From a virus, in IMG/VR virus record IMGVR_UViG_3300047378_000870, positions 1 to 55,432 of that record: DNA of 55,432 bases. One strand, written 5' to 3'. This document shows, in pieces, positions 3,757 through 19,124 of the stretch (its first letter is position 1; every line of letters begins with the position of its first letter). Under the pieces are notes generated by a model, which worked only from the letters and a program-made list of their open reading frames with translations, was not told where the DNA came from and ran no database searches. The translations under genes and the position numbers were made by a program.

Positions 3757-4373
3757 TGGAAATCAAAGCCGAGACCCTTGCAGACTGGATGAAGTTCATT
3801 CGGTTTCACCCCGACCTTGCTGAAAGATTTATGGACTGTTTCTGGGAGAGTCAACTCACCAGTAAGAGTCACTTGTTATATGCGCTCGAGGATTTTACCG
3901 ATCTGGGTAATGTTTATATTTTCGGTGGATGGTATGGTATCCTCGGAAAGTTATTAGAAGATTCATACAACTTACAAACACAAGTTATCGTCTCTATCGA
4001 TAAAGATCCAGTATGTGATTGGGTGATACGCAATCTATACAGCCAGCCGAGTAAGGTTGTTGGGTTCACGCATGACATGCAACACTTCCAGTATTCAGAA
4101 GAACACCCTCCACATACTGTGATTAACACCAGCACTGAGCATGTAACTCAAGAGGTATATGAGACTTGGTGGAAAAATATACCAGCAGGAACTTTGTATG
4201 CATTGCAAGGTAATAATTTCTGGGATGACCCAGAACATATTAGGTGTGCGCATGATATTGAAGAATTTAAAAAGATTAATTTGTGTGAGAATGTCCAGAC
4301 CGAGTTTTCATTCCCATGCGGTGGTCCAAATAATTCCGAGTTCCAGAGGTTTATGGTTGTTGGTGTAAAATGA
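3756..4373 (+). CDS. Class I methyltransferase-like protein
   Basis: A 205-residue protein with a GTG start inside the previous stop (TAGTG). VYIFGGWYGILGKLL and the strand ending VIVSIDKDP resemble motifs I and II of Rossmann-fold SAM-dependent methyltransferases; the C-terminus ends FMVVGVK. It shares its plan and C-terminal strand with the protein at 46431-47099 (YMVIGSK), which also lies in a glycan island. Substrate unknown; a sugar or small-molecule acceptor would fit the neighbours. A catalytic motif beyond the SAM-binding part is not obvious. Confidence 0.6.
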   Translation: MEIKAETLADWMKFIRFHPDLAERFMDCFWESQLTSKSHLLYALEDFTDLGNVYIFGGWYGILGKLLEDSYNLQTQVIVSIDKDPVCDWVIRNLYSQPSKVVGFTHDMQHFQYSEEHPPHTVINTSTEHVTQEVYETWWKNIPAGTLYALQGNNFWDDPEHIRCAHDIEEFKKINLCENVQTEFSFPCGGPNNSEFQRFMVVGVK

Positions 4374-5089
4374 TTACATTGATCACAACTTATTTTGAAG
4401 ACCCTCATCGTTTAGAACATTATCTTGAAAATGCATTCAATGAAGATGTATTCGATGAGTTTATTATCGTTGATGATGGTTCTCCGAATACACCAGCATA
4501 TGACATTGTAAAAAAATACATTAATAAAAACGTATCACTTTTTAGGGTAAAAGATGATATTGGATTCAACTCACACGGTGCTAGAAACTTAGCAATGAAG
4601 CATGTTAATACTGAGTGGGCATATATGGTAGATATAGATAGAGGGGATATCTTTGATTACTCTAAAATATTGCAAAGATACTGCCTGACAGCAAAAGATG
4701 ATGAATATTTCATTTCTCATTTAGAACATAAAGGTGAAGTGACACATAACGATTATTGCGTCAGAACAAAAAGTTGGTGGACTAGCGGTGGGTATGATGA
4801 AGAGTTCACTAATTACCATTTTGGCGATAGGATGTTTATAGATCGTTTAAATTTATTTTTGAAACCCACAATTATCCCTTATTGTATTAAATCAACCAGA
4901 GAAGCCAGAAAATTTGAGTATTATGATGGCTCTAAAACTGTATATCCCGATGATGATACTGTCATTCATCCTCATGTAGATAAGAAAAAATTGAAAGAGA
5001 TAATTGACAAGGTTGGCATGCGTAATGATAATCCTAATCTATGGCGAAGAGATAATATAATTCAGTTTGAATGGGAACAGTTATTATGA
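4370..5089 (+). CDS. Family 2-like glycosyltransferase
   Basis: A 239-residue protein with a GT-A fold signature: N-terminal ITLITTYFEDPHRLEHYL, then FIIVDDGSPN (nucleotide-sugar binding) and a YMVDIDRGD acidic motif around residues 85-93 acting as DxD. It starts in an ATGA overlap with the methyltransferase stop. It probably transfers a sugar from a nucleotide-sugar donor; the acceptor (host surface glycan or virion protein) is unknown. It is shorter than bacterial GT2 enzymes and has no membrane segment, as usual for phage versions. Confidence 0.75.
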   Translation: MITLITTYFEDPHRLEHYLENAFNEDVFDEFIIVDDGSPNTPAYDIVKKYINKNVSLFRVKDDIGFNSHGARNLAMKHVNTEWAYMVDIDRGDIFDYSKILQRYCLTAKDDEYFISHLEHKGEVTHNDYCVRTKSWWTSGGYDEEFTNYHFGDRMFIDRLNLFLKPTIIPYCIKSTREARKFEYYDGSKTVYPDDDTVIHPHVDKKKLKEIIDKVGMRNDNPNLWRRDNIIQFEWEQLL

Positions 5090-6483
5090 GTGATCTAGAT
5101 AGGGCATTAATGCTTCGTGATGCGATGAATGATGTTTTTAGTGAAACTTTTTGTTTTGCTAAGTGGTATCACACAACTATCTACTTGCACACAGGTATGA
5201 CACATTCTTGTTATCATCCTGCACCACACAAGATACCTCTAGAGGGTCTTGATAAAAACCCCAGCCAGCTTCATAATACACCGCATAAAAAACAAGAACG
5301 AAAACAGATGTTGACTGGTGAGCGTTGTGTCGGTTGCCAGTATTGTTGGAATGTTGAAGATATGGGAGAGGATTATATTTCCGACCGTGTTATAAGGTCA
5401 GCATCTCTTTGGAAAGAAGGACGCAAAAAAGAAATACAGGATAATCCTTGGGACTTCGATGTAAACCCTGATTATATTGAATTGGCATTTAGTAATGAAT
5501 GCAATTTTAAATGTGGGTATTGTCACCCCATATCAAGTTCTTCATACACGCAAGAGATTAAGAAGTTTGGTCCATATGATATGGTTGAGAACCACAGACT
5601 TGATATTGATTGGTTCAAGCCATTTGACGAGGGTGATAATCCATATATTAAAGCATGGTGGGAGTGGTGGCCAGAGGTTTCAAAAACTTTGAGAATTCTA
5701 CGGCTGACAGGCGGCGAACCGTTGATGCATAAATCTACTTGGCGTTTGTTTGAGGAGTTACATAGAAATCCATTACCACACCTTGAGTTAAATGTAAACA
5801 GCAATATGGGTGTGAAAACTGCATTTGTTGAAAACCTAGCTGCAAATGTAAATCTAATCAGAGAGAAAAATGCTGTCAAACAGTTTGCTCTTTATACAAG
5901 TATTGATTGTTGGAATGAACGAGCAGAATATATTAGAACAGGTCTGGACTTAGAGTTGTGGGAAAAGAATATCGATATCTTCGCAACACAAGCTAAGACT
6001 CCAATCAATCTTATGATTACCTTCAATGCTCTTACTGTATCTACTTTTAAGTCTCTTCTTGAAAAGATTTTAGAATGGCGTAAGAAGTATGATGGTGTTA
6101 TCATTCCCACAAGCGACTCACAAAGAACTATTCGCTTCGATACACCATATCTAAAAGAACCCTTGCATTATGATATGAATATCTTGCCGAAAGACGAGTT
6201 CATGCCATATATGACCGAGTGTCTCGAATATATAGAGTCTAATGTCGATGACAATGACCCAACTATGTTTCAAACAGTTGAGTATGAGAAGTTTCGTCGT
6301 GTCCATGATTATATGAAGACAAGCGACTATGGTGAAGAAAAAATTAACGAAGGTCGTAAAGACTTTTACAATTGGTTTAATGAGTATGATAAGAGAAGAA
6401 ATACAAACTTCTTAGAGACGTTTCCCGAATATGAAGATTTTTATAACAGGTGTCGCAGGATTTCTGGGCAGTCATCTAGCTGA
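5086..6483 (+). CDS. Radical SAM protein with N-terminal twitch/SPASM-like cysteines
   Basis: Starts at the ATG overlapping the previous stop (ATGA); an in-frame ATG at 5071 is less likely. The CNFKCGYC core (Cys 139, 143, 146) is the CX3CX2C [4Fe-4S] site of radical SAM enzymes. Before it comes a separate cysteine set (FCFAKW, SCYHP and CVGCQYC at 81-87), the arrangement of the twitch-domain radical SAM proteins common in marine phages. LRLTGGEPLMH is the GGE motif that contacts SAM. The reaction is unknown; in a cluster with sugar enzymes a modified sugar or peptide is plausible. Its 3' end overlaps the next gene by 53 bases. Confidence 0.85.
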   Translation: MSDLDRALMLRDAMNDVFSETFCFAKWYHTTIYLHTGMTHSCYHPAPHKIPLEGLDKNPSQLHNTPHKKQERKQMLTGERCVGCQYCWNVEDMGEDYISDRVIRSASLWKEGRKKEIQDNPWDFDVNPDYIELAFSNECNFKCGYCHPISSSSYTQEIKKFGPYDMVENHRLDIDWFKPFDEGDNPYIKAWWEWWPEVSKTLRILRLTGGEPLMHKSTWRLFEELHRNPLPHLELNVNSNMGVKTAFVENLAANVNLIREKNAVKQFALYTSIDCWNERAEYIRTGLDLELWEKNIDIFATQAKTPINLMITFNALTVSTFKSLLEKILEWRKKYDGVIIPTSDSQRTIRFDTPYLKEPLHYDMNILPKDEFMPYMTECLEYIESNVDDNDPTMFQTVEYEKFRRVHDYMKTSDYGEEKINEGRKDFYNWFNEYDKRRNTNFLETFPEYEDFYNRCRRISGQSSS

Positions 6484-7456
6484 TAGATTTTTAGCGGATG
6501 GACATACAGTAGTTGGTGTTGATAACCTCATTGGTGGTTTTGTCCGCAATGTCCACGATGATGTGAAATTTACTAAAGCAGATTGTCGCGATCAGAATCT
6601 TATGAAGTTTCTGATTGATGACTCAGATGTAGTTGTCCATGCAGCTGCTACAGCACACGAAGGGCTGTCAGTATTCAGCCCATCTTTCATCACCAAGAAT
6701 ATCTATGAAGCGAGTGTCTCGATGATAAGCGCATCGATCGCTGCTGGTGTTAGGAGGTTCGTGTTTTGCTCAAGTATGGCACGTTATGGTAATCAAGGGT
6801 TGCCTCGCGATAGTGGTGTTCATATTGAGTTTAGAGAACACATGAAACCACAACCCGAAGATCCATATGGCATTGCTAAAGTTGCAGTCGAACAAACTCT
6901 CAAGATGCTGGCGGATTTGCATGGCATGGAATGGAATATTGCTGTTCCTCATAATATTGTCGGTGAGCGTCAACGCTACGATGACCCATATAGAAATGTT
7001 TTGAGTATTATGGCTAACCGCAACCTACAAGATAAACCATCTATCATTTATGGTGATGGTGAGCAGATGCGTTGTTTCTCATATGTAGGTGATTGCGTTG
7101 ATTGTTTAGAAAAGATGGTAACTGATCATACGATAAGAAGTGAAATCATTAATATTGGACCAGATGAAAACCCTATCACTATAAACGAAGCAGCTAAATT
7201 GGTAGCGAAAGCAGCTGGTGCTAACTCTCCGCCGATATATTATCCTGATAGACCACAAGAGGTAAAGATCGCTACATGTAGCAGTGATAAAGCAAGAAAA
7301 CTATTGGGGTATGAGACAAAGACCACCACAGAGGAAGCCATACAAAAGACTGTAGATTACATCAAACAGAATGGACCAAGACCCTTCGATTATAACTACA
7401 ATTTAGAAATAGTAAATGATTTGACACCTGTCACTTGGAAAGATAGGTTGATGTAA
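6431..7456 (+). CDS. NAD-dependent sugar epimerase/dehydratase (extended SDR)
   Basis: A 341-residue protein with the Rossmann motif ITGVAGFLGSH at the N-terminus, DNLIGG as the NAD-ribose acidic site, catalytic FCSSMARYG and YGIAK (YxxxK), and a substrate loop with GDGEQMRCFSYVGD. It resembles UDP-sugar 4-epimerases of the GalE/WbpP group. It probably makes a nucleotide sugar for the neighbouring transferases. The start overlaps the radical SAM gene by 53 bases in another frame, an unusually long overlap. The ATG is directly followed by the GxxGxxG strand, so no later start is possible. Confidence 0.9.
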   Translation: MKIFITGVAGFLGSHLADRFLADGHTVVGVDNLIGGFVRNVHDDVKFTKADCRDQNLMKFLIDDSDVVVHAAATAHEGLSVFSPSFITKNIYEASVSMISASIAAGVRRFVFCSSMARYGNQGLPRDSGVHIEFREHMKPQPEDPYGIAKVAVEQTLKMLADLHGMEWNIAVPHNIVGERQRYDDPYRNVLSIMANRNLQDKPSIIYGDGEQMRCFSYVGDCVDCLEKMVTDHTIRSEIINIGPDENPITINEAAKLVAKAAGANSPPIYYPDRPQEVKIATCSSDKARKLLGYETKTTTEEAIQKTVDYIKQNGPRPFDYNYNLEIVNDLTPVTWKDRLM

Positions 7457-8637
7457 TGAATTTTATGTTTGAAGATTTTTCCACTATGGAAAATTTTATT
7501 GGAAGCGACACGTATGTTAATTCTTGCCAGAGTAGATTTCAAATATGCCCAATGATTAATACAATGTTGAGACAACAACAAGTATCAGATATAATTACAC
7601 ATACAAATAGCAATTATCTGATTCCTGTTGGGGTGAATGGATCTATACAACAGTGGGCGAAAGGTGATTGCACGCATCGGGCAGGGTCGCGCTTCCCGAA
7701 ACGCAGTGGGGCAGACTCTCTGTTTAATTACCTGAGTGATAAGTATCTCGTAGATATGAGAGAGGGTCGCGCAATACTCTTAATTGATTTCTCTCTTGAA
7801 GGTTATCATGAAGACTGGTTGTTTGAATGGTTTCACGATCAATTTAAACTTTTTAATATACCTGCTGCTTCAGTTGTTTATACAGTTGGTAATACGTTGA
7901 TTGCTGAACAATATGAAGAATACTCTAAATCCCTGCCAGAAAAAATGAAATGTATTCCATATACAGGATTTGAAGAATTTATATACACAGTTTCGGCAAA
8001 GCAAGAGCAAATAACAGTAGATAAACATATAGAGTATAAAGAGAATAATGAAACTTGGGCGTTTAACTGCCCTCAAAAAAGAGCAAGACCGCACAGAAAA
8101 CAATTTTTTAAATTACTCAAACAATATAATCTAGTTAACAGAAACTTATGTAGTTTTCCCGATGAAGGAAATTTTATCTTAGGTGAAGAGCACGAAAAAG
8201 AAACAGGGTTTTACATTAATAGAATACATCCTGATTACTGCCTAAAGACCTTTGTAACGGTTGTGAGCGAACCTCAATTTTATGAGGCAGAATTATCTGT
8301 CTTTAACAGTGAAAAGGTGTTTAAGCCAATCGCTTGTTCTCACCCATTCATAGTATTGGGTGGCAAGGGATCTTTACAAAAAATGAGAGATAGAGGTTAT
8401 AAAACCTTTTCAGATTACTTTGACGAATCTTATGACGAACTACCAGATACTATGAGAATGGAAGCGATTATTGATGTTTTATATGAAATTGAATCTATAA
8501 AAGATAAGGTTGAATGGTTTGAATCAATGAGACCCATTTTAGAACATAATAAAAAGCAACTAAAGATAAATTCTACAAAGCCTGATGTTGCCGTTGTAGA
8601 ATTGGAAAAATATTATAAGGAGTATTTTGGTGAGTAA
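7456..8637 (+). CDS. Glycosyltransferase-like protein
   Basis: A 393-residue protein. The N-terminal two thirds are not recognisable. The C-terminal part, FVTVVSEPQFY then FNSEKVFKPIACSHPFIVLG followed by GSLQKMRDRGYKTF, resembles the donor-binding segment of exostosin and fucosyltransferase-like GT-B enzymes (SEK-K-P-HPF-G). The start overlaps the epimerase stop by one base (TAATG). It probably acts on the glycan made by this island. The call rests on the C-terminal motif only. Confidence 0.55.
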   Translation: MNFMFEDFSTMENFIGSDTYVNSCQSRFQICPMINTMLRQQQVSDIITHTNSNYLIPVGVNGSIQQWAKGDCTHRAGSRFPKRSGADSLFNYLSDKYLVDMREGRAILLIDFSLEGYHEDWLFEWFHDQFKLFNIPAASVVYTVGNTLIAEQYEEYSKSLPEKMKCIPYTGFEEFIYTVSAKQEQITVDKHIEYKENNETWAFNCPQKRARPHRKQFFKLLKQYNLVNRNLCSFPDEGNFILGEEHEKETGFYINRIHPDYCLKTFVTVVSEPQFYEAELSVFNSEKVFKPIACSHPFIVLGGKGSLQKMRDRGYKTFSDYFDESYDELPDTMRMEAIIDVLYEIESIKDKVEWFESMRPILEHNKKQLKINSTKPDVAVVELEKYYKEYFGE

Positions 8638-9469
8638 ATTATTCATCGGAATTGGTGATAGCTTCACACAGGGTCAAGGATCTGTCTCTGATCAGACATA
8701 TGAAGAGTATGGTCGCGAAGTATATAATTCTACACATAGATTACCCATCGATAAGTTTGAAAGAGAAAACAGTTGGGTGAGTGTAATCTGTCGAGATTAC
8801 TTGGATGATTTCACTCCTTTAAACTTGGGTGAAAAGGGAAGAGGTAATAGGGCTTCTGTGAAGGAATTGTATCTCAATGACATAGATCCAGACATAGAGA
8901 AGATCGTGGTTTTTGCTCTCAGTGGTATGGAAAGATTTGATTTCCCACAGAGAGATAAAAACTTTCAACAACATCATTTTTATGCGATGTTCCCTAATCC
9001 ATGGGACAAAAATGCAACACATGCGTCACTTTGGAAGGCATATGCTGATCACGTCTATAGTGAGCAATTTTGTGTTATTGAGACAATGCTGAATATCTTA
9101 GAAGCGCAGACTTGGTGTAAAGCAAATAATGCTAAGTTGGTAATCGTATCTGCATTTGATATGCGTATCACAAAAGAATATTTCATCGATAATCTTCCTG
9201 GATTAAAAAAAGAGCTTGTTAATCAAATACATTGGGATAAGTTTTTCTATCCACAAGGTTATAGAACTCTGATGCACATGCTTATTGACAAACAAGAAAA
9301 TGATTCTAAATATGCCTTTGACCTAGCACATGGCGGGTATTTTGATCGATATAGTAAACTGGAAAGGTCTGATGGATATATCACCCCGTGTGCACATCCA
9401 AGCGAGATCGGACATAAATTAATTGCTGAAGTTCTGTATCAACATTTAGAAGAGAAATCCTATGCATGA
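8630..9469 (+). CDS. SGNH/GDSL-type hydrolase-like protein
   Basis: GTG at 8630 is chosen as start because AAGGAGT lies 8 bases upstream; a TTG at 8627 is also in frame. The N-terminal FIGIGDSFTQGQG carries the catalytic Ser of the SGNH superfamily (GDS), followed by LNLGEKGRGNRAS (blocks II/III) and a C-terminal CAHPSEIGHKLIAE with the D/H-like block (H in AHPS). This family removes or moves acyl groups on sugars or lipids. In this setting it may O-acetylate or deacetylate a surface glycan. About 280 residues, no signal peptide, so it acts in the cytoplasm. Confidence 0.75.
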   Translation: MSKLFIGIGDSFTQGQGSVSDQTYEEYGREVYNSTHRLPIDKFERENSWVSVICRDYLDDFTPLNLGEKGRGNRASVKELYLNDIDPDIEKIVVFALSGMERFDFPQRDKNFQQHHFYAMFPNPWDKNATHASLWKAYADHVYSEQFCVIETMLNILEAQTWCKANNAKLVIVSAFDMRITKEYFIDNLPGLKKELVNQIHWDKFFYPQGYRTLMHMLIDKQENDSKYAFDLAHGGYFDRYSKLERSDGYITPCAHPSEIGHKLIAEVLYQHLEEKSYA

Positions 9470-10280
9470 AGTTATTAGACCTAAAGACTTAAATTTTTTA
9501 GATGAAAATGATTTACTGCCAGGAACATTTCCTACATATAACAATCCTGATGACCCTGAAAAAATTGATGTTAGATTCGCTGGAACTGACAATCCAACCA
9601 GTTATGAAAAGAATATGAGGGATCCTGCATTTCGTAAAAAGTGGGAATCCCAACCAATTACATATCGTGTTAATAGTAATGGATATCGTTGTGAAGAGTT
9701 TAGTAAGATTGACTGGGAAAATTCAGTTGCGATAATTGGCGACTCTTGTGTTTATGGCATGGGTGTTCCCAGAACTCATGTTGTAAGTTATCTTTTAGAA
9801 CGAATGATTGGCAGAACAGTAATTAATCTAGGTGTTGGTGGCTGCAGTAATATGTTTATAATGTATAATAATATGAAACTATTGCAAAAATATAGACCAT
9901 GGGCTGTGATTAATATTTGGACTGCACCTGAAAGAATGACATTATTTCAAAAACCTAAAGCTGGTTTCACAGGTGTCAGACATATAGGTTCTTGGGATGA
10001 ACATAATGTAAGTTATCAGAAATTCTGGCTACATAGTGAAGGCAATTATTTAGGACACACCAAGATGTGTCAGGATGTTTGCGCACAACTAAATAGAGAT
10101 AATAGGTATTTAAGTTATACACCGAGGCAGTTCAGTTTAAATAAAGATAGTGAATTTCCATTTTTTGGTGGAGCAGCGAGGGATAAATTACATCCCGATA
10201 AGTTTACTTATAAAATGCAAGCGCGTTACATAAAAGAGGATTTTATCAGAAATGGTTGGTTTGTTGAAGAAGATAATTAA
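9462..10280 (+). CDS. Second SGNH-hydrolase-like protein
   Basis: A 272-residue protein with AIIGDSCVYGMGV around residue 90 (GDS block I), TVINLGVGGCSN (block II/III Gly and Asn) and near the C-terminus DKLHPDKF, giving the His block. The N-terminal 85 residues, including an RVNSNGYR segment, precede the domain, as in many phage SGNH proteins. It overlaps the previous gene by 8 bases. The two SGNH genes are not close copies. A role in acyl modification of glycans is inferred from the family and neighbours. Confidence 0.7.
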   Translation: MHEVIRPKDLNFLDENDLLPGTFPTYNNPDDPEKIDVRFAGTDNPTSYEKNMRDPAFRKKWESQPITYRVNSNGYRCEEFSKIDWENSVAIIGDSCVYGMGVPRTHVVSYLLERMIGRTVINLGVGGCSNMFIMYNNMKLLQKYRPWAVINIWTAPERMTLFQKPKAGFTGVRHIGSWDEHNVSYQKFWLHSEGNYLGHTKMCQDVCAQLNRDNRYLSYTPRQFSLNKDSEFPFFGGAARDKLHPDKFTYKMQARYIKEDFIRNGWFVEEDN

Positions 10281-10356
10281 TAAGTGGAAAACTAAAAGAG
10301 AATTGAAAAAACGTATTAAAGAACTAAGAAAAAGAGATCCGTTCATTTATGATTAG
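10264..10356 (+). CDS. 30-residue basic micro-protein (KRDPFIYD)
   Basis: A TTG at 10264 opens a 30-codon frame that overlaps the SGNH gene by 17 bases and the carbamoyltransferase ATG by 8 bases, exactly filling the gap. The product is extremely basic (KKIINKWKTKRELKKRIKEL) and ends RKRDPFIYD. I recall similar very short proteins ending in a DPFIY motif in marine T4-like phages, which together with the snug fit makes it a credible gene. Function unknown. An ATG start is lacking, so expression needs proof. Confidence 0.5.
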   Translation: MKKIINKWKTKRELKKRIKELRKRDPFIYD

Positions 10357-11791
10357 TTGGGGTGTTGCAGCAGGAACTCATGATGGTTCATTAGCTGTTA
10401 TTGATGATGATAAAATTCTTTTTGCAAGTCACACGGAAAGATATAGTCGTGTGAAAAATGACGCACACCTAAACAAAGAAATACTCGATGCAGCTCTTAA
10501 ATACGGAGAACCATCTGAAATTTTCTGGTATGAAAAACCAGTGTTGAAAGCCTTGCGCAAATTATATGCAGGTCAATCTAACTTGTGGATGAATCCACGA
10601 GAATATCTCAAATCTTATGGGATAAATCAAAGGAATATAAAATATGTCAAACATCATGACTCTCATGCAGCGGCTGGGTTCGCAACTTCTAAATTTAACT
10701 CTGCTGCCGTTCTTGTTATTGATGCTATTGGTGAGTTCACCACTACTTCTATATCATTATATAAAAGTGAAACAGGCAGTCGCCACAGCAGTCAATGCCT
10801 TTTTAAACGATCCTACCCATGGTCGTTAGGTCTATTCTACTCAGCTATTACTGATAGAGCAGGGCTAAAACCCAACGAAGAAGAATATATCCTTATGGGT
10901 ATGTCAGCATATGGTCGCACTAATTGGGTCAACGAAATGCGTCATATGATAAGAACAGGATTTAACTTTCATAAAGGTTGTAGAAGTTTTTTCCCAGATG
11001 CAGATTCATTCGATCTTGCGAAGTCTGCTCAAATAGTATATGAAGAAGAATTTATAAAGTTAGTTAAGAAAGCTAAAGAACTAACTGGTGAAGATAACCT
11101 TGTTGTTATGGGAGGCTGTGCACTTAATTGTCTTGCTAATACATTGGCATTCGAACATTTTGATAATGTTTGGATAATGCCTAATCCTGGGGATGCTGGT
11201 AGCTCTATCGGAGCTTATGCGGCAGGAACAGGTAGGATGCTAGACTGGAAGACACCATATCTTGGAGAGGACATCGGGAATGGTAAATACCCAGTAAAGC
11301 AAGCTCTGGGAGAGCTATTGCAAAATAAAATTGTGGGAGTGGCGAGCGGACGAGCCGAGTTTGGTCCAAGAGCATTGGGCAATCGTAGTCTGCTCGCCGA
11401 TCCAACAGGTCAAGAAATGAAAGACGTTGTCAATAAAATTAAGAAGCGTCAAGAGTTTCGTCCCTTTGCTCCTGTTATCTTACAATCAGACGTTCATAAA
11501 TATTTTAATGTTAAGCGTGGATTTTCTAGTCCATACATGCAATATATTGTCACAGCAAAAGATCCTGATCAGTATCCAGCAATTGTGCATGCAGATGGGA
11601 CGAGCCGAGTTCAGACTGTGACAAAAGAACAACATCCAGGATTATGGCGACTGTTGCAACAGTATAAGAAGCATACAGGAACACCGATGTTACTGAATAC
11701 ATCCCTTAATATTAAGGGAGAACCAATGGTAAACACGAGGTTAGATGCTAATAATTTTGAAAAAACTTACTCGGTAAAAGTTGTTTCTTAA
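10349..11791 (+). CDS. NodU/CmcH-type carbamoyltransferase
   Basis: A 480-residue protein with the family plan: N-terminal GVAAGTHDGSLAVID (ATP-binding, ASKHA fold), YVKHHDSHAAAGF (catalytic/metal His-Asp-His), VVMGGCALNCLAN, GDAGSSIGAYA, and the C-terminal YrdC-like part with GRAEFGPRALGNRS, EFRPFAPV and NTSLNIKGEPMVNT. It moves a carbamoyl group from carbamoyl phosphate, through carbamoyl-AMP, to a hydroxyl. With the neighbours it probably carbamoylates a sugar. It is shorter than bacterial NodU (about 560-600) and ends soon after the GEPMVNT motif. The start ATG overlaps the micro-protein stop. Confidence 0.92.
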   Translation: MISWGVAAGTHDGSLAVIDDDKILFASHTERYSRVKNDAHLNKEILDAALKYGEPSEIFWYEKPVLKALRKLYAGQSNLWMNPREYLKSYGINQRNIKYVKHHDSHAAAGFATSKFNSAAVLVIDAIGEFTTTSISLYKSETGSRHSSQCLFKRSYPWSLGLFYSAITDRAGLKPNEEEYILMGMSAYGRTNWVNEMRHMIRTGFNFHKGCRSFFPDADSFDLAKSAQIVYEEEFIKLVKKAKELTGEDNLVVMGGCALNCLANTLAFEHFDNVWIMPNPGDAGSSIGAYAAGTGRMLDWKTPYLGEDIGNGKYPVKQALGELLQNKIVGVASGRAEFGPRALGNRSLLADPTGQEMKDVVNKIKKRQEFRPFAPVILQSDVHKYFNVKRGFSSPYMQYIVTAKDPDQYPAIVHADGTSRVQTVTKEQHPGLWRLLQQYKKHTGTPMLLNTSLNIKGEPMVNTRLDANNFEKTYSVKVVS

Positions 11792-12136: not shown

Positions 12137-12889
12137 ATGTCCAGAAGAAAAACAAATCTTCAATTAATACAGGATGATACAACCTCTAGCAAAAAAGGAA
12201 ACAATAGACTAATACCTCGGCTCAATGACCTCGATGTTTTTGACCCCCTAACACCTACCCAAAAATCGTTCTTTGATACTTATGAGAACGCCCAAGCGAT
12301 GCTTTTACATGGTTCAGCAGGAACTGGTAAAACTTTCATCGCTCTCTATAAAGCACTTGAACAAGTGCTAGAAAAATCAAACACCTTCGATAAAGTTGTA
12401 ATCTGTCGTTCTGCAGTGGCATCAAGAGATATTGGTCACCTGCCTGGAAATGAAGTAGAGAAAACTGAAGTGTTTATGCGCCCATACATTGATATGTGCC
12501 AAGAATTTTTCCCCGACAAACAGCAAGCATTTGAACGCCTACAGGAAGCAAAGAAGGTTGATTGGATGATCACTTCATTTGTTCGAGGCATTACACTTGA
12601 CGACGCTATCATTATCGTTGACGAATGTCAGAATATGAACGACATGGAACTCAACTCAATTATGACACGCATCGGTCAAAGAAGTAAAATCATATTTGCT
12701 GGCGACTTCAAACAGTCCGATCTCTATGCTAAGAGAAACGATATGTCGGGGCTACAAAAATTTATGGTTATCGCTGAGTTGATGCCATCATTTAAAATAT
12801 TTGAGTTCACACCTGATGATATTGTAAGAAGCGATCTCGTTAAAGAATATATAGTAGCGAGAGAAAAATACGAACAAGAATACGCTTGA
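12137..12889 (+). CDS. phoH: PhoH-like P-loop ATPase
   Basis: A 250-residue protein. Walker A GSAGTGKT (59-66), Walker B IIIVDECQN (158-166) and the PhoH-type segments LTPTQKSFFD before the P-loop and IIFAGDFKQSDL after Walker B place it firmly in the PhoH family. PhoH is a very common marine-phage gene; bacterial relatives are linked to RNA handling or phosphate stress, and its phage role is unresolved. The ATG is preceded by AAGG at about 7 bases. The next gene has its own promoter overlapping the 3' end. Confidence 0.93.
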   Translation: MSRRKTNLQLIQDDTTSSKKGNNRLIPRLNDLDVFDPLTPTQKSFFDTYENAQAMLLHGSAGTGKTFIALYKALEQVLEKSNTFDKVVICRSAVASRDIGHLPGNEVEKTEVFMRPYIDMCQEFFPDKQQAFERLQEAKKVDWMITSFVRGITLDDAIIIVDECQNMNDMELNSIMTRIGQRSKIIFAGDFKQSDLYAKRNDMSGLQKFMVIAELMPSFKIFEFTPDDIVRSDLVKEYIVAREKYEQEYA

Positions 12890-12919: not shown

Positions 12920-13579
12920 ATGTTTACCCATGTGAAAGAACTGAGTGATTTTGCTCAAGATAAAACTGCCCCAGATGGAAGTCGTAAATACTTCACCGAA
13001 TCTGGGGCAGCATATCCTTCTGTTACCACTGTCCTTAGTGTCTTATCCCGTGATTCAATTCGTGCGTGGAGAAAGCGTGTTGGTGCAGAGGAAGCAAATA
13101 AAATCAGTCGCCAAGCATCGACACGCGGAACAAAAATTCATACTCTTTGCGAAGATATCCTCAACAATAAAGAAGTTGATACGAGTAAGATGTCTTTGCT
13201 TGATACAGAAATGTTCAATAAATTCAGACCTTTGTTAGACCGCATTGATAACATACATGGTCAAGAGATTGCTCTCTTTTCTGATCACCTCAGACTCGCA
13301 GGTCGTGTTGACTGTGTCGCCGAGTTTGATGGTAAACTTAGCATCATCGATTTCAAAACCTCAAAAAAGCCAAAAAGAAAAGAATGGATTGAAAACTACT
13401 TTGCACAGGCTGCAGGTTATGCAATCATGTATGAAGAGCGCACTGGCATTCCCATTAATAGAAGCGCGATCCTTATTGCAGTTGAAGGTGACGATCCACA
13501 AGTTTTCGTCGAGAATCGTGATAACTATGTTGATATTCTACTGAATGCAAGAGATATTTGGGAATCAGAGAATGTATGA
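12920..13579 (+). CDS. RecB/Cas4-like PD-(D/E)XK exonuclease
   Basis: A 219-residue protein. YPSVTTVLSVL at the N-terminus, TRGTKIHTLCE (upstream His), LRLAGRVDCVAEF and SIIDFKTSKKPK form the D-x(n)-D-x-K nuclease motifs, and YFAQAAGYAIMYEE supplies the QxxxY motif of RecB-type nucleases. Similar single-domain exonucleases are found in cyanophages and other marine T4-like phages, probably in DNA processing or recombination. A sigma-70-type promoter ends five bases before the ATG, and no ribosome site is present, so the message may be leaderless. Confidence 0.85.
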   Translation: MFTHVKELSDFAQDKTAPDGSRKYFTESGAAYPSVTTVLSVLSRDSIRAWRKRVGAEEANKISRQASTRGTKIHTLCEDILNNKEVDTSKMSLLDTEMFNKFRPLLDRIDNIHGQEIALFSDHLRLAGRVDCVAEFDGKLSIIDFKTSKKPKRKEWIENYFAQAAGYAIMYEERTGIPINRSAILIAVEGDDPQVFVENRDNYVDILLNARDIWESENV

Positions 13580-14375
13580 ATTAAGACCCTTACCTGATGC
13601 AACTTGGGAAGATTGGTCTAAATTTAAACGCCCAGAAGAAAATTATGGTCTTGCAGATTTTAATTTAAACGATTTGTATTTTGAATTCGACCCCATACAA
13701 ATACACAAAGAAGTTATGTATTGGGTTACATCTAAATATCCGTCATGTGATTTAAACTGGCATTCAAATAAATTAGTTGGTTGCAGCACATCTAATTTTC
13801 CAATGTATTATGAGACTTTCTTAAAACTTAGTTGGTTAACGAAGGTATATCTTAAAGAGAGTTTTAAATACCCAATGGGATTAATTTGGTTCCCACATTC
13901 AAAGGGTATCGATGAGGGTAATTGGTGGATACATCCTGGAGGTGGTCGACAAAAAGTTGTTGCTATGTTTGGCGACCGCGACCAAACGATGGAATTCCTA
14001 ACCTTTAATACATATGGGAAACCCGTAAAATTTAAGAGAGTTTTTGAACGAGAAGAAGAGTTCAAAGATTATTTCAATGCACCTTATGGTATTGCGTATG
14101 TAGCAGATAAAGGCACATTAATACCACATTGTCTGTTCAATTCGGTTCAAAACAATACTAGTTTAAGAGATCCACTGGAAGCGTATCTAGATTTGATACA
14201 TAAATATAAGATAGATATTAATGGTAAACCTATTACATCATTTGGCGATAAAAAATTAAACGTTGTTTCAGCAGAAGATCCTGAGAGTGAATTGAGAGCC
14301 TTAGTCTTACTGCCATTTTATGAACTTTACAATGAATCAGATTACAGAAAATATAACATCCAAATCATTACCTGA
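13572..14375 (+). CDS. Conserved phage protein of unknown function
   Basis: About 267 residues from the ATG at 13572, which overlaps the nuclease stop (a longer reading starts at 13545). It has many aromatic residues and no membrane segment. The stretch NWWIHPGGGRQKVVAMF around residues 115-130 is the most distinctive motif; HPG-x-R motifs recur in phage proteins placed by radical SAM and glycan genes, but I know no function. The 3' end overlaps the radical SAM gene by about 44 bases, suggesting a joint role. Confidence 0.6.
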   Translation: MYELRPLPDATWEDWSKFKRPEENYGLADFNLNDLYFEFDPIQIHKEVMYWVTSKYPSCDLNWHSNKLVGCSTSNFPMYYETFLKLSWLTKVYLKESFKYPMGLIWFPHSKGIDEGNWWIHPGGGRQKVVAMFGDRDQTMEFLTFNTYGKPVKFKRVFEREEEFKDYFNAPYGIAYVADKGTLIPHCLFNSVQNNTSLRDPLEAYLDLIHKYKIDINGKPITSFGDKKLNVVSAEDPESELRALVLLPFYELYNESDYRKYNIQIIT

Positions 14376-15312
14376 ATTAGGAAGAGCGGTCATCGAGGTA
14401 TTCGGTGGTTGTAATTATACTTGTCAGATGTGCCCACAGACTTGGGGTCGTGGAGCAGATTGGACTCGTAAGATGCCATTGGATCTGTTCGAGGATATTC
14501 TCAAACAATTAAAGGGTAAGCCAATCATTAACTTGGAGGGTTCTGGTGAGCCATCTATGGCAAAGAACCTGCATGAGTATGTCCAGCTTTGCACAGATTA
14601 TGGGTTTGATAGTTTCATCTATACAAATGGATCGTTTCTGACTGGCGAGCGTATGGAGAAAGCGATTGATGCTGGGTTGAAGTTTATCCGTTATAGTTGC
14701 ATTGGTTATGATAAAGAAACATACAAACAGTGGATGGACACTGATGGGTTCGAGCGTCTAAGATCTCATATCCAACAAGCACAAACATATATCCAAGAAA
14801 CAGGTGCTGATTGTCAGCTTTCAACATATCATTTGATTCTTGATAATGATAAAATTGGAGAAGAAGTCAAACTCTATCGCAAAAATATAGTTGACAAACT
14901 CGGCATTACAGGTTATATCTGGAAGATGCATAACTGGAGTGGTAACTACGATCCTGAATATGGACGCGAGGCTGAAAACGTTAGAACCTGTGGTCGTCCA
15001 TTCAGTGATGAGATTACGATCCGCTCTGGTGGTAACGATGGACATAGGGGTGCTGTTACACCTTGTTGTCAGACGATGGGTCAGCCCAACGAAGCTAAGT
15101 CAGTTCTCGGACATGCAGATGATACAAGTCTCGCCGATATCTGGTGGGGTGAGGAATACGAAAAACTTCGTGAAGACCATAGAACTGGTGATTATCCCGA
15201 TTACTGTAAATCTTGTGACTTCCTATATGATAACCCTGAAGTATTGGTCTGGAGTAATGACTCAACTGCAAGAGTTGACCACATGCTAGGCGTTGAGTTT
15301 GACCTCAGATAG
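14332..15312 (+). CDS. Radical SAM protein with SPASM-like C-terminus
   Basis: From the ATG at 14332 (14320 is also in frame). CNYTCQMC (Cys 27, 31, 34) is the CX3CX2C cluster site, LEGSGEPSM replaces the usual GGEP motif, and SCIGYDKETY lies in the barrel. The C-terminal part holds several cysteines (RTCGRPF, VTPCCQT, YCKSCDF) fitting a SPASM-type auxiliary cluster domain; the final TPCC then WW-x-KLR...YPDYCKSCD is typical. Substrate unknown; SPASM enzymes commonly modify peptides. It ends just upstream of the tmRNA promoter. Confidence 0.87.
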   Translation: MNQITENITSKSLPELGRAVIEVFGGCNYTCQMCPQTWGRGADWTRKMPLDLFEDILKQLKGKPIINLEGSGEPSMAKNLHEYVQLCTDYGFDSFIYTNGSFLTGERMEKAIDAGLKFIRYSCIGYDKETYKQWMDTDGFERLRSHIQQAQTYIQETGADCQLSTYHLILDNDKIGEEVKLYRKNIVDKLGITGYIWKMHNWSGNYDPEYGREAENVRTCGRPFSDEITIRSGGNDGHRGAVTPCCQTMGQPNEAKSVLGHADDTSLADIWWGEEYEKLREDHRTGDYPDYCKSCDFLYDNPEVLVWSNDSTARVDHMLGVEFDLR

Positions 15313-15315
15313 TTG

Positions 15316-15346
15316 TTGACTAAAATACAATAATATGCTATAAATA
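15316..15346 (+). promoter_or_regulatory. tmRNA promoter: sigma-70 and late-type elements overlapping
   Basis: TTGACT at 15316-15321, exactly 17 bases, then TATAAATA at 15339-15346. The same box works as a -10 (TATAAA) and as a T4-type late core. Start of transcription would be near 15351. Confidence 0.65.
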
Positions 15347-15350
15347 GAGA

Positions 15351-15632
15351 GTTCGATGAAACGAGCTAAACGGTATGCAGGACGCGGCTTCGAAGCCGCC
15401 ACCTCCACCATCCCATATGTTATTCTTATGGGGGTGAAATGGGATCGACTGGTATTTAATAGGTAAGTGGAGAACAGGTGCGGAAGCCACCTATGAGACG
15501 GACGGGCGATCCCATCCGCAAGAGCGCAACAAACTCGTAAATGCAAACGATAACAATGCATATGAAGGCTACGCTCTAGCAGCTTAGTTTTTCGGGGTCA
15601 GGGGACGCCTAGCAACAGAAGTCCCCAACTAC
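15351..15632 (+). ncRNA. ssrA: Circularly permuted two-piece tmRNA
   Basis: The 3' half comes first: a T arm (15384-15399), the acceptor strand CACCTCC and an encoded ACCA ending at 15410. After a 19-base linker the 5' half begins at 15430 with GGGGGTG, which pairs with CACCTCC over all seven positions (one G-U), followed by AAATGGGATCGACTGG, the D-like region of tmRNA. The tag frame begins at the resume codon GCA (15543) after GTAAAT and reads ANDNNAYEGYALAA, stop at 15587. The GGGGAC...GTCCCC hairpin at the 3' side belongs to a downstream structure. This order is that of alphaproteobacterial, cyanobacterial and some betaproteobacterial tmRNAs; the tag is alphaproteobacterial in style. It would rescue stalled ribosomes with host SmpB and Ala-tRNA synthetase. 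The T loop appears to have six rather than seven bases. Ends are approximate. Confidence 0.93.
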
Positions 15633-15653
15633 TTTATTATGAAAGGTTATATT

Positions 15654-15947
15654 ATGCAAAAATATATTTATGATAGTTGGAACTATATCTTCAGTCACGA
15701 TATGAGTCCTCTTAAAAATATCCCCGATGTTAATACGAGACATATGATTCTACAAGTTCTTGCTTGGATGTGGGTCGTTGCTTTCAGTATTATGATTGGT
15801 AGTTGGACTGGGTTTTTAGCATCAGCTTTAGGTCATATCGCAATCTTGGCAGCACTTGCTGTCACAGTCGGAACTTATGCAGAGGCTCAAAGAACACCTA
15901 ATGTATTTTCCAACCTGCGTGGTCGTGTTGATGGTGAACACGAATGA
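15654..15947 (+). CDS. Two-helix membrane protein, candidate holin
   Basis: The ATG at 15654 follows AAAGG; an in-frame ATG at 15639 is possible. About 97 residues with two membrane helices: MILQVLAWMWVVAFSIMIGS and a second, LGHIAILAALAVTVGTYAEA. The charged C-terminus is short. Its stop overlaps the cell-wall hydrolase start (ATGA), and a small two-helix protein directly before an endolysin is the classic holin place. Still, similar proteins of other roles are known, so the call is tentative. Confidence 0.6.
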   Translation: MQKYIYDSWNYIFSHDMSPLKNIPDVNTRHMILQVLAWMWVVAFSIMIGSWTGFLASALGHIAILAALAVTVGTYAEAQRTPNVFSNLRGRVDGEHE

Positions 15948-16456
15948 AGTTTCTTGATTCTTTAGCAGCCGTATTAGTTTCCATATCAACCAATCCTACG
16001 ATGCCTAATGAGATGGGAATCAAAACAATTATTGATCCACAAGTTGCATGTTTGGCGCAAAACATCTATCACGAAGCGAGAAACGAGTCAACTGCAGGGT
16101 GGATCGCTGTAGCTGATGTGACTATGAATAGAGTGAAGTCGGATGCTTTCCCTAATACAATATGTGAAGTTGTTTACGAAAGTCCACACTACGAAAGTTC
16201 GGTGAGTGGTAAACTCTTCCCATATAAGAACCGTTGCCAATTTAGTTGGTATTGTGATGGTAGGAGTGATGAAGTGAAAAACATGCGCAAATATAATCAG
16301 ATTTATGAAGTTGCCAAATTGACACTGAAGACTGAACTTGATATTACGGATGGTGCACTATTTTACCATGCTGATTATGTGAAACCTCATTGGGCAGATA
16401 AGATGGATGTGACTGCTCGCATCGATGCTCATATATTTTATAAGCCGAAAAACTAA
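15944..16456 (+). CDS. SleB-type cell-wall hydrolase (endolysin candidate)
   Basis: A 170-residue protein of the Hydrolase_2/SleB family. CLAQNIYHEARNES near residue 40 holds the catalytic Glu, followed by WIAVADVTMNRV, FPNTICEVVYES, CQFSWYCDG and a C-terminal GALFYHADYVKPHW. These enzymes cut peptidoglycan glycan strands. The N-terminal 30 residues are weakly hydrophobic, and no firm signal peptide is visible, so release probably depends on a holin. Because gp5 here has no lysozyme domain, this is the only clear peptidoglycan hydrolase in the window. Confidence 0.88.
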   Translation: MKFLDSLAAVLVSISTNPTMPNEMGIKTIIDPQVACLAQNIYHEARNESTAGWIAVADVTMNRVKSDAFPNTICEVVYESPHYESSVSGKLFPYKNRCQFSWYCDGRSDEVKNMRKYNQIYEVAKLTLKTELDITDGALFYHADYVKPHWADKMDVTARIDAHIFYKPKN

Positions 16457-17304
16457 TGCATATTGTTGTTACAGGTGGATGTGGCTTTATTGGAGGTCAC
16501 TTAGTTGAAGGTCTTGCTGAACGTGGCTATCAGGTAACTGTTGTTGACGATCAGCGCAACGGTAAGTTTGTTACACACCAATCTAATGTAGATTATGTGT
16601 TTGAAGATGTTTGTAACTTTACACCACCTCCATGTGATGCGATTATTCATCTAGCAAATACACCTCGAGTTAGACTATCTTTCGAGCAACCAGTTGATGC
16701 AATATTAAATAATATCAATCCCACTATTCATGTATGTGAATGGGCTGCTACATATAATGTTCCCTTATATTTCGCTCAATCGTCGAGTGCCATATATAGT
16801 GAACCATATTCAAATCCCTATACATTTGGTAAAGCTATGTGTGAAGAAAGTTTGCACTTTTATCAAAAGCATTGGGGGATTCAATTCCACTTGATGTATT
16901 TCTATAATGTGTATGGACCAAGAGAAGCTGATTATGGCGAACACAGCACAATCATTCGCTCTTTTAAAAATCAAATCGATAAAGGTGAAAGCCTCAAAGT
17001 ATTTGGCACAGGACTAAAGTCCAGAGATTTTACACACGTTGAAGATGTAGTTTCTGGTATTCTAAAATTCATAACAGCCCCTAAAAATAAAAAACCGAAA
17101 CAAGCACACTTCGGTTCATCTCGACCATATACAATAAATGAGGTCGCTGAAGCGTTCGATCACCCAATTGTTCATGAGTTTGACAAGCCAGGAGAAGCTG
17201 CTCATACAGTTTGTAAAAACCCTTATATAAAAAGGACACACGATGTTATTCAGTATATTAAAGAATGGAAACGGAGAAATCATAATGCCAAAAGTAGTAG
17301 TTGA
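16456..17304 (+). CDS. NAD-dependent sugar epimerase/dehydratase (second)
   Basis: A 282-residue extended SDR: VVTGGCGFIGGHL at the N-terminus, VVDDQRNGK for NAD ribose, FAQSSSAIYSE, and YTFGK as the YxxxK catalytic pair, then FYNVYGPRE and RDFTHVEDV typical of UDP- and GDP-sugar epimerases. Shorter than the enzyme at 6431-7456 and clearly a different subgroup. The start overlaps the hydrolase stop (TAATG). It sits between lysis and replication genes, outside the first glycan island. Confidence 0.87.
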   Translation: MHIVVTGGCGFIGGHLVEGLAERGYQVTVVDDQRNGKFVTHQSNVDYVFEDVCNFTPPPCDAIIHLANTPRVRLSFEQPVDAILNNINPTIHVCEWAATYNVPLYFAQSSSAIYSEPYSNPYTFGKAMCEESLHFYQKHWGIQFHLMYFYNVYGPREADYGEHSTIIRSFKNQIDKGESLKVFGTGLKSRDFTHVEDVVSGILKFITAPKNKKPKQAHFGSSRPYTINEVAEAFDHPIVHEFDKPGEAAHTVCKNPYIKRTHDVIQYIKEWKRRNHNAKSSS

Positions 17305-17581
17305 TAATGATATGTCAACAGATGCAACTAAAATAACAGATGAATATCTAATTACAAAGCAATTCAAATCATCATCAGACTTTTCACAACATATTGAGAA
17401 AGAAGCATCTCGCACTCGCGCTGGTTTTATTGATACAATCGTTTCATTTTGTAATAAAAATAATATTGAGGTCGAGTCTGTCAAGAAACTCCTCACAACA
17501 TCTCTCAAAGATAAAATAAAAGTAGAAGCTACAGAACTAAATCTCATCAAAGGTGAGAAGTCTGGTAAGTTGCCGTTCTAA
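17285..17581 (+). CDS. gp33: gp33-like late-transcription coactivator
   Basis: ATG at 17285 with a GGAG site; it overlaps the epimerase by 20 bases. Of 98 residues, the conserved part is FSQHIEKEASRTRAGFIDTI followed by SFCNKNNIEVESVKKLL and LKDKIKVEATELNLI, matching gp33 of marine T4-like phages. In T4, gp33 bridges RNA polymerase and the gp45 clamp so that gp55 can start transcription at late promoters; the TATAAATA sites in this window are its expected targets. Synteny with gp59-gp32 supports the call. Confidence 0.8.
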   Translation: MPKVVVDNDMSTDATKITDEYLITKQFKSSSDFSQHIEKEASRTRAGFIDTIVSFCNKNNIEVESVKKLLTTSLKDKIKVEATELNLIKGEKSGKLPF

Positions 17582-18156
17582 TGGAACCATTTGAAGTTTA
17601 CAAGTTATATCTTGCATTAAAACTTCACTTTACAACAGAAAAATATGACATCACGAAAACACGTGGTGCAGTGAAAGCAAGCGAGAAAGCATTCCTTAAA
17701 CGCAAGGATATTATCGCTATGCGTAAACTCGCAAGAGATTACACGAAAAAAGAAGTCATTGATTTACTTGTAGCCAACTTTGTCTCAGGCGATAAATGGG
17801 GTGGAATGTTTGATACCCAGTCATCAGAGATCTATAAAGATTGGAAGACTCGTAAATCAAGGAGAGAATATCAGTTCAACCAAGATGTAGAACTGATAAA
17901 ATTAGAGATGGAAAAACAATCTATCTCTAATCCGTTTGTAGCTGATCAGGGGCATCATGCTCTGGTATATCGACTCTATTTGGGCAAAAAAATTACGATA
18001 GAATCGTTAGTTTTGCTTGACAAATTGTTCGATTTAAGCTATAAAGAAGAAGATGATATATTCCTGAAGGACATCTCCTTGCTCATCAGGAAGTATCGTC
18101 CGTTTGTTAAACTAACAGACAAGATGAGGTATGTAGGTGAAAACATTTATAAATAA
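17581..18156 (+). CDS. gp59: gp59-like loader of replicative helicase
   Basis: A 191-residue protein, close to T4 gp59 (217). The N-terminal PFEVYKLYLALKLHFTTEKY is the family hallmark, followed by KASEKAFLKRKDI, KEVIDLLVANFVSGDKWGG and the C-terminal helical part. gp59 brings the gp41 helicase onto gp32-coated DNA. Its start overlaps the gp33 stop by one base (TAATGG) and gp32 follows directly, the usual order. Confidence 0.9.
   Translation: MEPFEVYKLYLALKLHFTTEKYDITKTRGAVKASEKAFLKRKDIIAMRKLARDYTKKEVIDLLVANFVSGDKWGGMFDTQSSEIYKDWKTRKSRREYQFNQDVELIKLEMEKQSISNPFVADQGHHALVYRLYLGKKITIESLVLLDKLFDLSYKEEDDIFLKDISLLIRKYRPFVKLTDKMRYVGENIYK
18148..18155 (+). promoter_or_regulatory. T4-type late promoter before gp32
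   Basis: TATAAATA within the last codons of gp59, 60 bases before the gp32 ATG. It gives gp32 a leader of about 55 bases that contains a small GTCC/GGAC hairpin (18160-18176). Confidence 0.55.
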
Positions 18157-18215: not shown

Positions 18216-19124
18216 ATGTCGTTTAATTCACTATCTGACTTGCGCAAAGCAAGAGGCTCTTTCGATAATCTAATGAAAGAAGTCGAAAAAATTGACTCCC
18301 CCCAAAATAACTACAAGAAAGATGACGGTAACGAGTGGAAGCTCTCAGTAGATTCCGCTGGTAACGGTTACGCTGTCTTGCGTTTCTTGCCTGCACCGAA
18401 AGGCGAGGAACTCCCATGGGTTCGCATGTTCAATCATGGGTTCCAAGGTCCAACAGGAAAGTGGTATATCGAAAACTCACTTACCACGTTGAACCAACAG
18501 GATCCTGTTTCCGAGTTGAACAGCGAACTTTGGAACAGTGGCACTGATGCAAACAAAGATCTTGCTCGTAAGCAAAAACGCCGTTTGTCATATTATGCCA
18601 ATGTTCTTGTTGTTAAAGACTCAGCCAATCCTCAGAACGAGGGTCAGGTGATGCTTTACAAGTTCGGTAAGAAAATCTTTGACAAAATCAAAGATGTAAT
18701 GCAGCCTCAGTTCGAGGATGAGAATCCAGTGAATCCTTTTGATTTCTGGGAAGGTGTAAACTTTAAACTGAAGGCACGTCAGGTCGATGGATATCGTAAC
18801 TATGACAAGTCTGAGTTTGAATCAACCCCTACTCCTGTTGCAGATTCTGACGAAGCAATTGAAGCAGTATGGGCAAAGCAACACTCACTTGCTGAAATCG
18901 TCAGCCCTGACAACTTTAAGTCTTATGACGAACTGAAACAGAAATTAGATATGGTTCTTGCAGGCGGTGCGAAAGTTACCACTGCTGAGAAAGTCGCTGA
19001 GCAAACTGGTGATGTTGAAGACCAAATCTATGTGCAGGAAGCAACTTCTAGCACTGTCGTTTCTAACGCTGATGATGAAGATGATACATTGTCATACTTC
19101 GCGAAGTTGGCTGAAGAAGACTAA
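18216..19124 (+). CDS. gp32: gp32-like single-stranded DNA-binding protein
   Basis: A 302-residue protein, T4 gp32 length. N-terminal SFNSLSDLRKARGSFDNLM (cooperativity B-domain with the LAST-like basic patch), the OB-fold core with DGNEWKLSVDSAGNGYAVLR, GPTGKWYIENSLTT and RLSYYANVLVVKD, and an acidic C-terminus DDEDDTLSYF-x-EED for partner contacts. No cysteine is present, so the zinc site of T4 gp32 (three Cys, one His) is missing. Ribosome site CGGAG before ATG. Followed by a strong terminator. Confidence 0.95.
   Translation: MSFNSLSDLRKARGSFDNLMKEVEKIDSPQNNYKKDDGNEWKLSVDSAGNGYAVLRFLPAPKGEELPWVRMFNHGFQGPTGKWYIENSLTTLNQQDPVSELNSELWNSGTDANKDLARKQKRRLSYYANVLVVKDSANPQNEGQVMLYKFGKKIFDKIKDVMQPQFEDENPVNPFDFWEGVNFKLKARQVDGYRNYDKSEFESTPTPVADSDEAIEAVWAKQHSLAEIVSPDNFKSYDELKQKLDMVLAGGAKVTTAEKVAEQTGDVEDQIYVQEATSSTVVSNADDEDDTLSYFAKLAEED

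What the first reader, a model, noticed from the sequence alone, without database searches (positions are those of the whole stretch)
15351..15632. Phage-encoded, circularly permuted two-piece tmRNA
The acceptor half precedes the tag half; GGGGGTG pairs with CACCTCC-ACCA across a 19-base linker, and the tag ANDNNAYEGYALAA with stop follows a GTAAAT resume site. A permuted tmRNA carried by a T4-like phage points to capture from an alphaproteobacterial host and could replace or outcompete host tmRNA, recycle ribosomes on degraded host mRNAs, or direct proteolysis. The ALAA end should be seen by ClpXP, so it appears functional. The host range implied by the tag is a bonus for host prediction.
Basis: partly seen in the sequence, partly recalled or inferred. 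Interest (0 to 1): 0.88.

Follow-up and report, generated by a model that had tools for sequence, protein, structure and literature searches.

The report
Phage two-piece tmRNA, intact and mosaic
A marine T4-like phage carries its own intact gene for tmRNA, the RNA that frees stuck ribosomes and tags their unfinished proteins for destruction; such genes are already known in related ocean phages, but here relatives swap the part that spells the tag, and the gene sits behind a promoter that fits both early and late infection.

Summary
Window 15351-15632 (+) holds a complete permuted (two-piece) tmRNA gene: Rfam RF04321 103.5 bits and alpha_tmRNA RF01849 95.2 bits, both far over threshold. The acceptor stem, G3-U70 pair, 19-nt linker, tag ANDNNAYEGYALAA-stop and T4-like setting all check out. 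ARAGORN misses it. The kind is not new: Melnitz and Mosig tmRNAs are published (PMC9004378), and HTVC008M has one too, unannotated in its GenBank record. The tmRNA lies in a similar neighbourhood in all: PDDEXK nuclease upstream, gp33/gp59 region downstream.

(1) The gene is mosaic. A relative (L002) has a 100% identical body and 99.5% identical surroundings but a different tag cassette (16 changes in 85 nt, with a compensatory hairpin change). T-arm, pseudoknot insert and tag occur in mixed combinations (PHI p = 0.0005). (2) The promoter is composite: a T4 late box TATAAATA that also reads as the -10 of a sigma-70 promoter (TTGAC-N17). This recurs across viral tmRNAs (35/52, against 5/145 other TATAAATA sites).

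Capture from a particular host and host prediction from the tag are not supported. Function is inferred.

The parts
15316..15321 (+). -35-like hexamer TTGACT, 17 nt before TATAAATA
   Evidence: sequence; the same spacing in 32 of 35 other viral tmRNA promoters that have a -35
15339..15346 (+). TATAAATA: T4-type late promoter box that also serves as a sigma-70-like -10; predicted start at about 15351, the 5' end of the acceptor piece
   Evidence: late box consensus in PMC2984593
15351..15410 (+). acceptor piece of the two-piece tmRNA (part of the inter-piece helix, T-arm, 3' acceptor strand, encoded ACCA)
   Evidence: alignment
15384..15399 (+). T-arm GCGGC-TTCGAA-GCCGC: 5-bp stem with a 6-nt loop instead of 7
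   Evidence: stem pairs covary across 113 viral loci
15411..15429 (+). 19-nt linker between the pieces, expected to be removed by tRNA processing enzymes
   Evidence: processing inferred from permuted tmRNAs (PMC11915505)
15430..15632 (+). coding piece (5' acceptor strand, D-like region, pseudoknot region, tag, 3' hairpin); 3' end approximate
15476..15530 (+). candidate PK1: stem 1 AGGUG/CACCU (15476-15480 with 15488-15492); a possible second strand at 15524-15530 shows covarying columns in relatives
   Evidence: read from the alignment; not scored formally
15499..15518 (+). hairpin CGGACGGGCGATCCCATCCG, part of a 28-nt insert in the pseudoknot region that some relatives lack
15543..15587 (+). 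tag reading frame ANDNNAYEGYALAA and stop TAG
15541..15625 (+). exchanged tag cassette: 16 differences from L002 here, against 5 in the surrounding 1070 nt
15601..15626 (+). 3' hairpin GGGGAC-(loop with CCTAGCAACAGAA)-GTCCCC; L002 and L006 have GAGGAC/GTCCTC
12137..12889 (+). PhoH-like gene (conserved neighbour)
   Evidence: synteny
12920..13579 (+). PDDEXK nuclease gene (conserved neighbour)
   Evidence: synteny
17243..17581 (+). gp33 late-transcription coactivator (PF16805)
   Evidence: synteny
17581..18156 (+). gp59 helicase loader (PF08993)
18216..19124 (+). gp32 ssDNA-binding protein (PF08804)

Best explanation
This is a working two-piece tmRNA gene of a marine T4-like phage. RNA polymerase starts at about 15351 from a composite promoter that both the host sigma-70 enzyme and the phage late-transcription machinery (gp55/gp33/gp45) should recognise. 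tRNA-processing enzymes cut out the 19-nt linker; the two pieces stay paired; host AlaRS charges the acceptor piece at the G3-U70 identity pair. Host SmpB and EF-Tu bring it to ribosomes stalled on broken or host-degraded mRNAs; translation resumes on ANDNNAYEGYALAA-stop, the ribosome is freed, and the -LAA end sends the product to host ClpXP. The phage would need its own supply because host DNA and transcripts are destroyed during infection, so tmRNA can only be renewed from the phage genome. Within this phage group the gene recombines in pieces, so the tag changes while the tRNA-like body stays. Shown here: gene anatomy, family match, covariation, neighbourhood, promoter pattern, mosaicism. 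Inferred: transcription, processing, charging, ribosome rescue, proteolysis.
For: Both tmRNA covariance models match full length. Acceptor pair 6 covaries without exception over 113 viral loci (80 G-C, 33 A-T), and T-stem pairs 1-2 use all four Watson-Crick types with no mismatch. The tag frame is open and ends in -LAA in nearly all viral relatives. Similar neighbourhood in HTVC008M, Melnitz and Mosig. TATAAATA upstream of 57 of 113 viral permuted tmRNAs (1.9 expected), mostly 61-67 nt before the CRCCTCCACCA end; 35 of 52 also carry a TTGACA-like -35 against 5 of 145 other TATAAATA sites, Fisher p = 1e-20. Melnitz has TTGACA-N17-TATAAATA. Covarying 3' hairpin: 75% Watson-Crick against 31% when arms are shuffled.
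Against: No transcript or protein data. No SmpB in the 55-kb fragment, so it depends on the host, which is unknown. The 6-nt T-loop is unusual, though also found in tmRNAs of Rhizobiales genomes. Close relatives of one neighbouring ORF (L004, L008, L009) lack the gene at that position.
Confidence: 0.8

Rival explanations
1. Decoy: the phage RNA mainly titrates SmpB, EF-Tu or AlaRS, or displaces host tmRNA, and so inhibits host trans-translation, as was shown for tmRNA-like-domain-only molecules similar to that of phage DS6A.
For: A molecule like that of DS6A strongly inhibits tmRNA (PMC4131195). Tags vary widely between relatives, as if the tag itself mattered little.
Against: Unlike DS6A, the window gene keeps the resume region, tag, stop and -LAA end, and its relatives do too. 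A pure decoy needs no tag. The exchanged cassettes always keep ANDN at the start and LAA at the end.
Confidence: 0.1
2. Passenger or decaying gene recently picked up from a host.
For: Phages can carry host tmRNA fragments as integration sites; the gene is absent from this position in some relatives.
Against: Complete, covarying, with an intact tag and promoter; similar neighbourhood in divergent phages. No close bacterial relative among 385 alpha genomes. No integrase was seen beside it in the families searched.
Confidence: 0.04
3. The tag difference between L002 and the window is an assembly chimera, not recombination.
For: L002 is a single 5.5-kb metagenome contig, and an L204-like tag donor exists.
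Against: L002 carries a compensated hairpin change (GAGGAC/GTCCTC) absent from both the window and L204, so it is not a simple join of the two. A second pair from different samples, L057/L071, shows the same pattern. Module combinations in 11 relatives and the PHI test agree.
Confidence: 0.1
4. TATAAATA upstream of the tmRNA is only a sigma-70 -10 box and has no role in late transcription.
For: 67% of these sites also have a -35 at 17 nt, and 28 of 52 an extended -10.
Against: Among tmRNA promoters with a -35, the exact late octamer is by far the commonest -10 (36 of 63; next TATAATAT 7), whereas an ordinary sigma-70 box would be expected to drift towards TATAAT.
Confidence: 0.25

Closest known systems
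Melnitz (OM43 methylophage EXVC044M) and Mosig (pelagimyophage EXVC030M) permuted tmRNA (PMC9004378)
   Same: Permuted two-piece alpha-type tmRNA in a T4-like marine phage, in the same gene neighbourhood (PDDEXK nuclease upstream, gp33 and gp59 downstream); Melnitz has the same TTGACA-N17-TATAAATA promoter
   Different: Different tag and linker; gp6 only 36-39% identical. The authors called the promoter early and also found a glutamine riboswitch; no riboswitch was detected in this window.
Pelagibacter phage HTVC008M permuted tmRNA (not annotated in KC465899)
   Same: Same neighbourhood (PhoH, exonuclease, tmRNA, late transcription factor)
   Different: Shorter tag (10 residues, ANFNEYALAA) and no TATAAATA seen just upstream.
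Alphaproteobacterial two-piece tmRNA (Rfam RF01849; Caulobacter type)
   Same: Permutation, tRNA-like domain, ANDN... tag, conserved GGCAACAGAA-like 3' hairpin loop
   Different: 6-nt T-loop (rare in bacteria), shortened 3' region, pseudoknot insert, phage promoter.
Mycobacteriophage DS6A tmRNA-like domain (PMC4131195)
   Same: Phage-encoded tmRNA relative
   Different: DS6A is not permuted and lacks the tag; the window gene keeps the tag.

Membership tests
Permuted (two-piece) tmRNA, RF04321 | Covariance-model match above the curated cut-off | tested here: met
   103.5 bits against 47, full length 1-213
Permuted (two-piece) tmRNA, RF04321 | Acceptor piece before coding piece, joined by a linker | tested here: met
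   15351-15410, 15411-15429, 15430 onward
Permuted (two-piece) tmRNA, RF04321 | tRNA(Ala)-like acceptor stem with G3-U70 and CCA | tested here: met
   GGGGGUG with CACCUCC-ACCA; pair 6 covaries 80 G-C / 33 A-T
Permuted (two-piece) tmRNA, RF04321 | Tag frame with hydrophobic end and stop | tested here: met
   ANDNNAYEGYALAA-TAG, 15543-15587
Permuted (two-piece) tmRNA, RF04321 | 7-nt T-loop | tested here: not met
   6-nt TTCGAA loop; also seen in Rhizobiales tmRNAs, so a tolerated variant, not a defining feature
Alphaproteobacterial tmRNA, RF01849 | Match to the alpha model above cut-off, best of the clan | tested here: met
   95.2 bits against 50; kept as the best clan match there
Alphaproteobacterial tmRNA, RF01849 | Pseudoknot PK1 before the tag | tested here: inconclusive
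   stem 1 present; second strand supported only by a few covarying columns read by eye
tmRNA (function) | Transcribed, cut into two pieces, alanylated, works with SmpB | not testable with these tools
   no RNA or biochemical data; no SmpB gene in the window
Marine T4-like phage (Kyanoviridae-like) | T4 core genes | tested here: met
   gp5, gp6, gp33, gp59, gp32 homologues; nearest isolate HTVC008M at 38.8% in gp6

The most novel reading that the evidence does not exclude
Phage tmRNA in this group is a modular, recombining gene in which the middle of the tag is exchanged as a unit while ANDN- and -LAA ends are kept. The exchanged part is where adaptors such as SspB would bind, so the phages would be retuning how host proteolysis handles tagged proteins, with supply held through infection by a promoter read by both early and late machinery.
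Probability: 0.2. Interest if true: 0.75.

Novelty: new member of a known kind. Interest (0 to 1): 0.45.

Why it matters
Phage tmRNA has a published explanation (early tagging of host proteins) that rests on an early-promoter call. The late octamer inside the same promoter makes late or continuous expression at least as likely, and this can be tested in Melnitz or Mosig cultures. Tag exchange between near-identical genes is a natural experiment on which tag residues matter. ARAGORN found 73 of 114 distinct viral permuted tmRNAs tested, so ARAGORN-based counts of phage tmRNAs are probably too low. The tag is a poor host marker, which matters for host prediction.

Tried and rejected
Blastn of the gene against 50,697 phage records found only short matches to the tag region in Streptomyces phages. 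I first took the 6-nt T-loop as a possible new variant; the genome scan found the same loop in Rhizobiales tmRNAs, so I dropped that, and it is also not the reason ARAGORN fails (11 of 18 such genes are found). Free folding of the two pieces together gave a long-range structure unlike a tmRNA apart from the acceptor and T stems; thermodynamic folding alone is uninformative here. A flexible search for the 3' hairpin did not beat shuffled controls; the fixed-register test did. Literature searches found no paper on tag exchange in phage tmRNAs; the library lacks most subscription journals.

Full report
Observation. The window from 15351 to 15632 on the + strand is a complete permuted tmRNA gene. 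cmscan finds RF04321 (103.5 bits, cut-off 47) and RF01849 alpha_tmRNA (95.2 bits, cut-off 50), both over the full model. The acceptor piece ends CACCTCC-ACCA at 15410, the linker is 15411-15429 (19 nt), the coding piece starts GGGGGTG at 15430, and the tag ANDNNAYEGYALAA-TAG is 15543-15587. ARAGORN reports no gene in the window.

Comparative support. I collected viral contigs with alpha-type permuted tmRNAs by DNA patterns. Over 113 distinct loci, acceptor pair 6 is G-C in 80 and A-T in 33 with no mismatch, and the first two T-stem pairs take all four Watson-Crick forms without a mismatch. The other acceptor positions were fixed by the search pattern and prove nothing. The 3' hairpin pairs at 75% Watson-Crick against 31% for shuffled arms. 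The 6-nt T-loop TTCGAA of the window recurs in other viral tmRNAs and in tmRNAs of Rhizobiales genomes; it is a tolerated variant.

Phage and neighbourhood. The window encodes homologues of gp5, gp6, gp33, gp59 and gp32, and CsgG. gp6 is nearest to Pelagibacter phage HTVC008M at 38.8% identity, then Mosig and Melnitz. All three isolates have a permuted tmRNA. In each it lies downstream of the PDDEXK nuclease and near the gp33/gp59 genes, as in the window; PhoH is further upstream in HTVC008M, Melnitz and the window. The HTVC008M copy (145161-145370) is not annotated in KC465899. So the gene is an old feature of this phage group, although it also occurs at other positions in relatives and is absent beside the same neighbour gene in L004, L008 and L009.

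Origin. DNA similarity to 385 alphaproteobacterial genomes is limited to short conserved stretches, and a degenerate pattern for the tags of the window and L002 (first 11 residues) hits none of them. The alpha type is clear; a particular donor is not. Published work already shows an alpha-type tmRNA in a phage of OM43 (PMC9004378), so tmRNA type is not a safe host marker.

Mosaicism. Contig L002 matches the window at about 88% over 5.4 kb, but from 14974 to 16128 it is nearly identical, with 5 changes in 1070 nt outside the tag cassette and 16 in the 85 nt of 15541-15625 (Fisher p = 3e-15). Five of the seven changed codons are synonymous, and the 3' hairpin changes on both sides (GGGGAC/GTCCCC to GAGGAC/GTCCTC), so this is an imported cassette rather than point mutation. 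L204, at the same locus, has nearly the same tag as L002 (2 differences in the 45-nt frame) in a different body. L057 and L071 are a second pair: identical body and 3' part, different tag middle. Among 11 aligned relatives the 6- or 7-nt T-loop, the pseudoknot insert and the tag types occur in mixed combinations, and a PHI test is significant (p = 0.0005 at window 5, 0.013 at window 12). Compensatory changes and block changes could inflate this test somewhat.

Promoter. TATAAATA occurs at 15339, so transcription should begin at about 15351, the first base of the acceptor piece. TTGACT lies 17 nt upstream. In 113 viral loci, 57 have TATAAATA in the 160 nt upstream, against 1.9 expected from its density in the same contigs, and 49 of the 57 positions lie 61-67 nt before the CRCCTCCACCA end. 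Of 52 distinct such promoters, 35 have at least 5 of 6 matches to TTGACA, 32 at 17 nt, against 5 of 145 other TATAAATA sites in the same contigs (p = 1e-20). Overlapping early and late promoters are described as a middle mode in RB49 and cyanomyoviruses (PMC2984593). Melnitz has the same composite site, which its authors, using sigma-70 prediction, called early (PMC9004378).

Mechanism. The best reading is a working tmRNA that uses host SmpB, AlaRS and EF-Tu to rescue ribosomes during infection, from a promoter available early and late. Expression, processing and activity are inferred. No SmpB is encoded in this fragment. A decoy role is less likely because the tag is kept.

Verdict. The gene is a new member of a known kind. 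The mosaic tag and the composite promoter are the parts worth following.

Noticed in passing
L161 (G001 Ferirhizobium litorale, C3:5143-5359 and 5536-5766): A second permuted tmRNA copy lies just downstream of the first, with its acceptor piece truncated at the 5' side; looks like a duplication or island remnant.
   Followed up: partly
KC465899 (HTVC008M) 145161-145370: Permuted tmRNA not annotated in the GenBank record.
   Followed up: yes
window 14320-15312: Radical SAM/SPASM protein gene directly upstream of the tmRNA; another radical SAM-like ORF at 5071-6483.
   Followed up: no
window 1543-2355 (-): CsgG curli pore homologue, as in other pelagimyophage-like genomes.
   Followed up: no
window 4370-11791: Cluster with glycosyltransferase, epimerase and carbamoyltransferase genes, probably surface or sugar modification.
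   Followed up: no
L034, L037, L054, L061, L116, L118: Viral tmRNAs with a very long tag, ANDNALSNVTFVDFSAPVTAVNEDFALAA (29 residues).
   Followed up: no
114 viral permuted tmRNA loci: ARAGORN finds only 73 of 114 distinct loci.
   Followed up: yes
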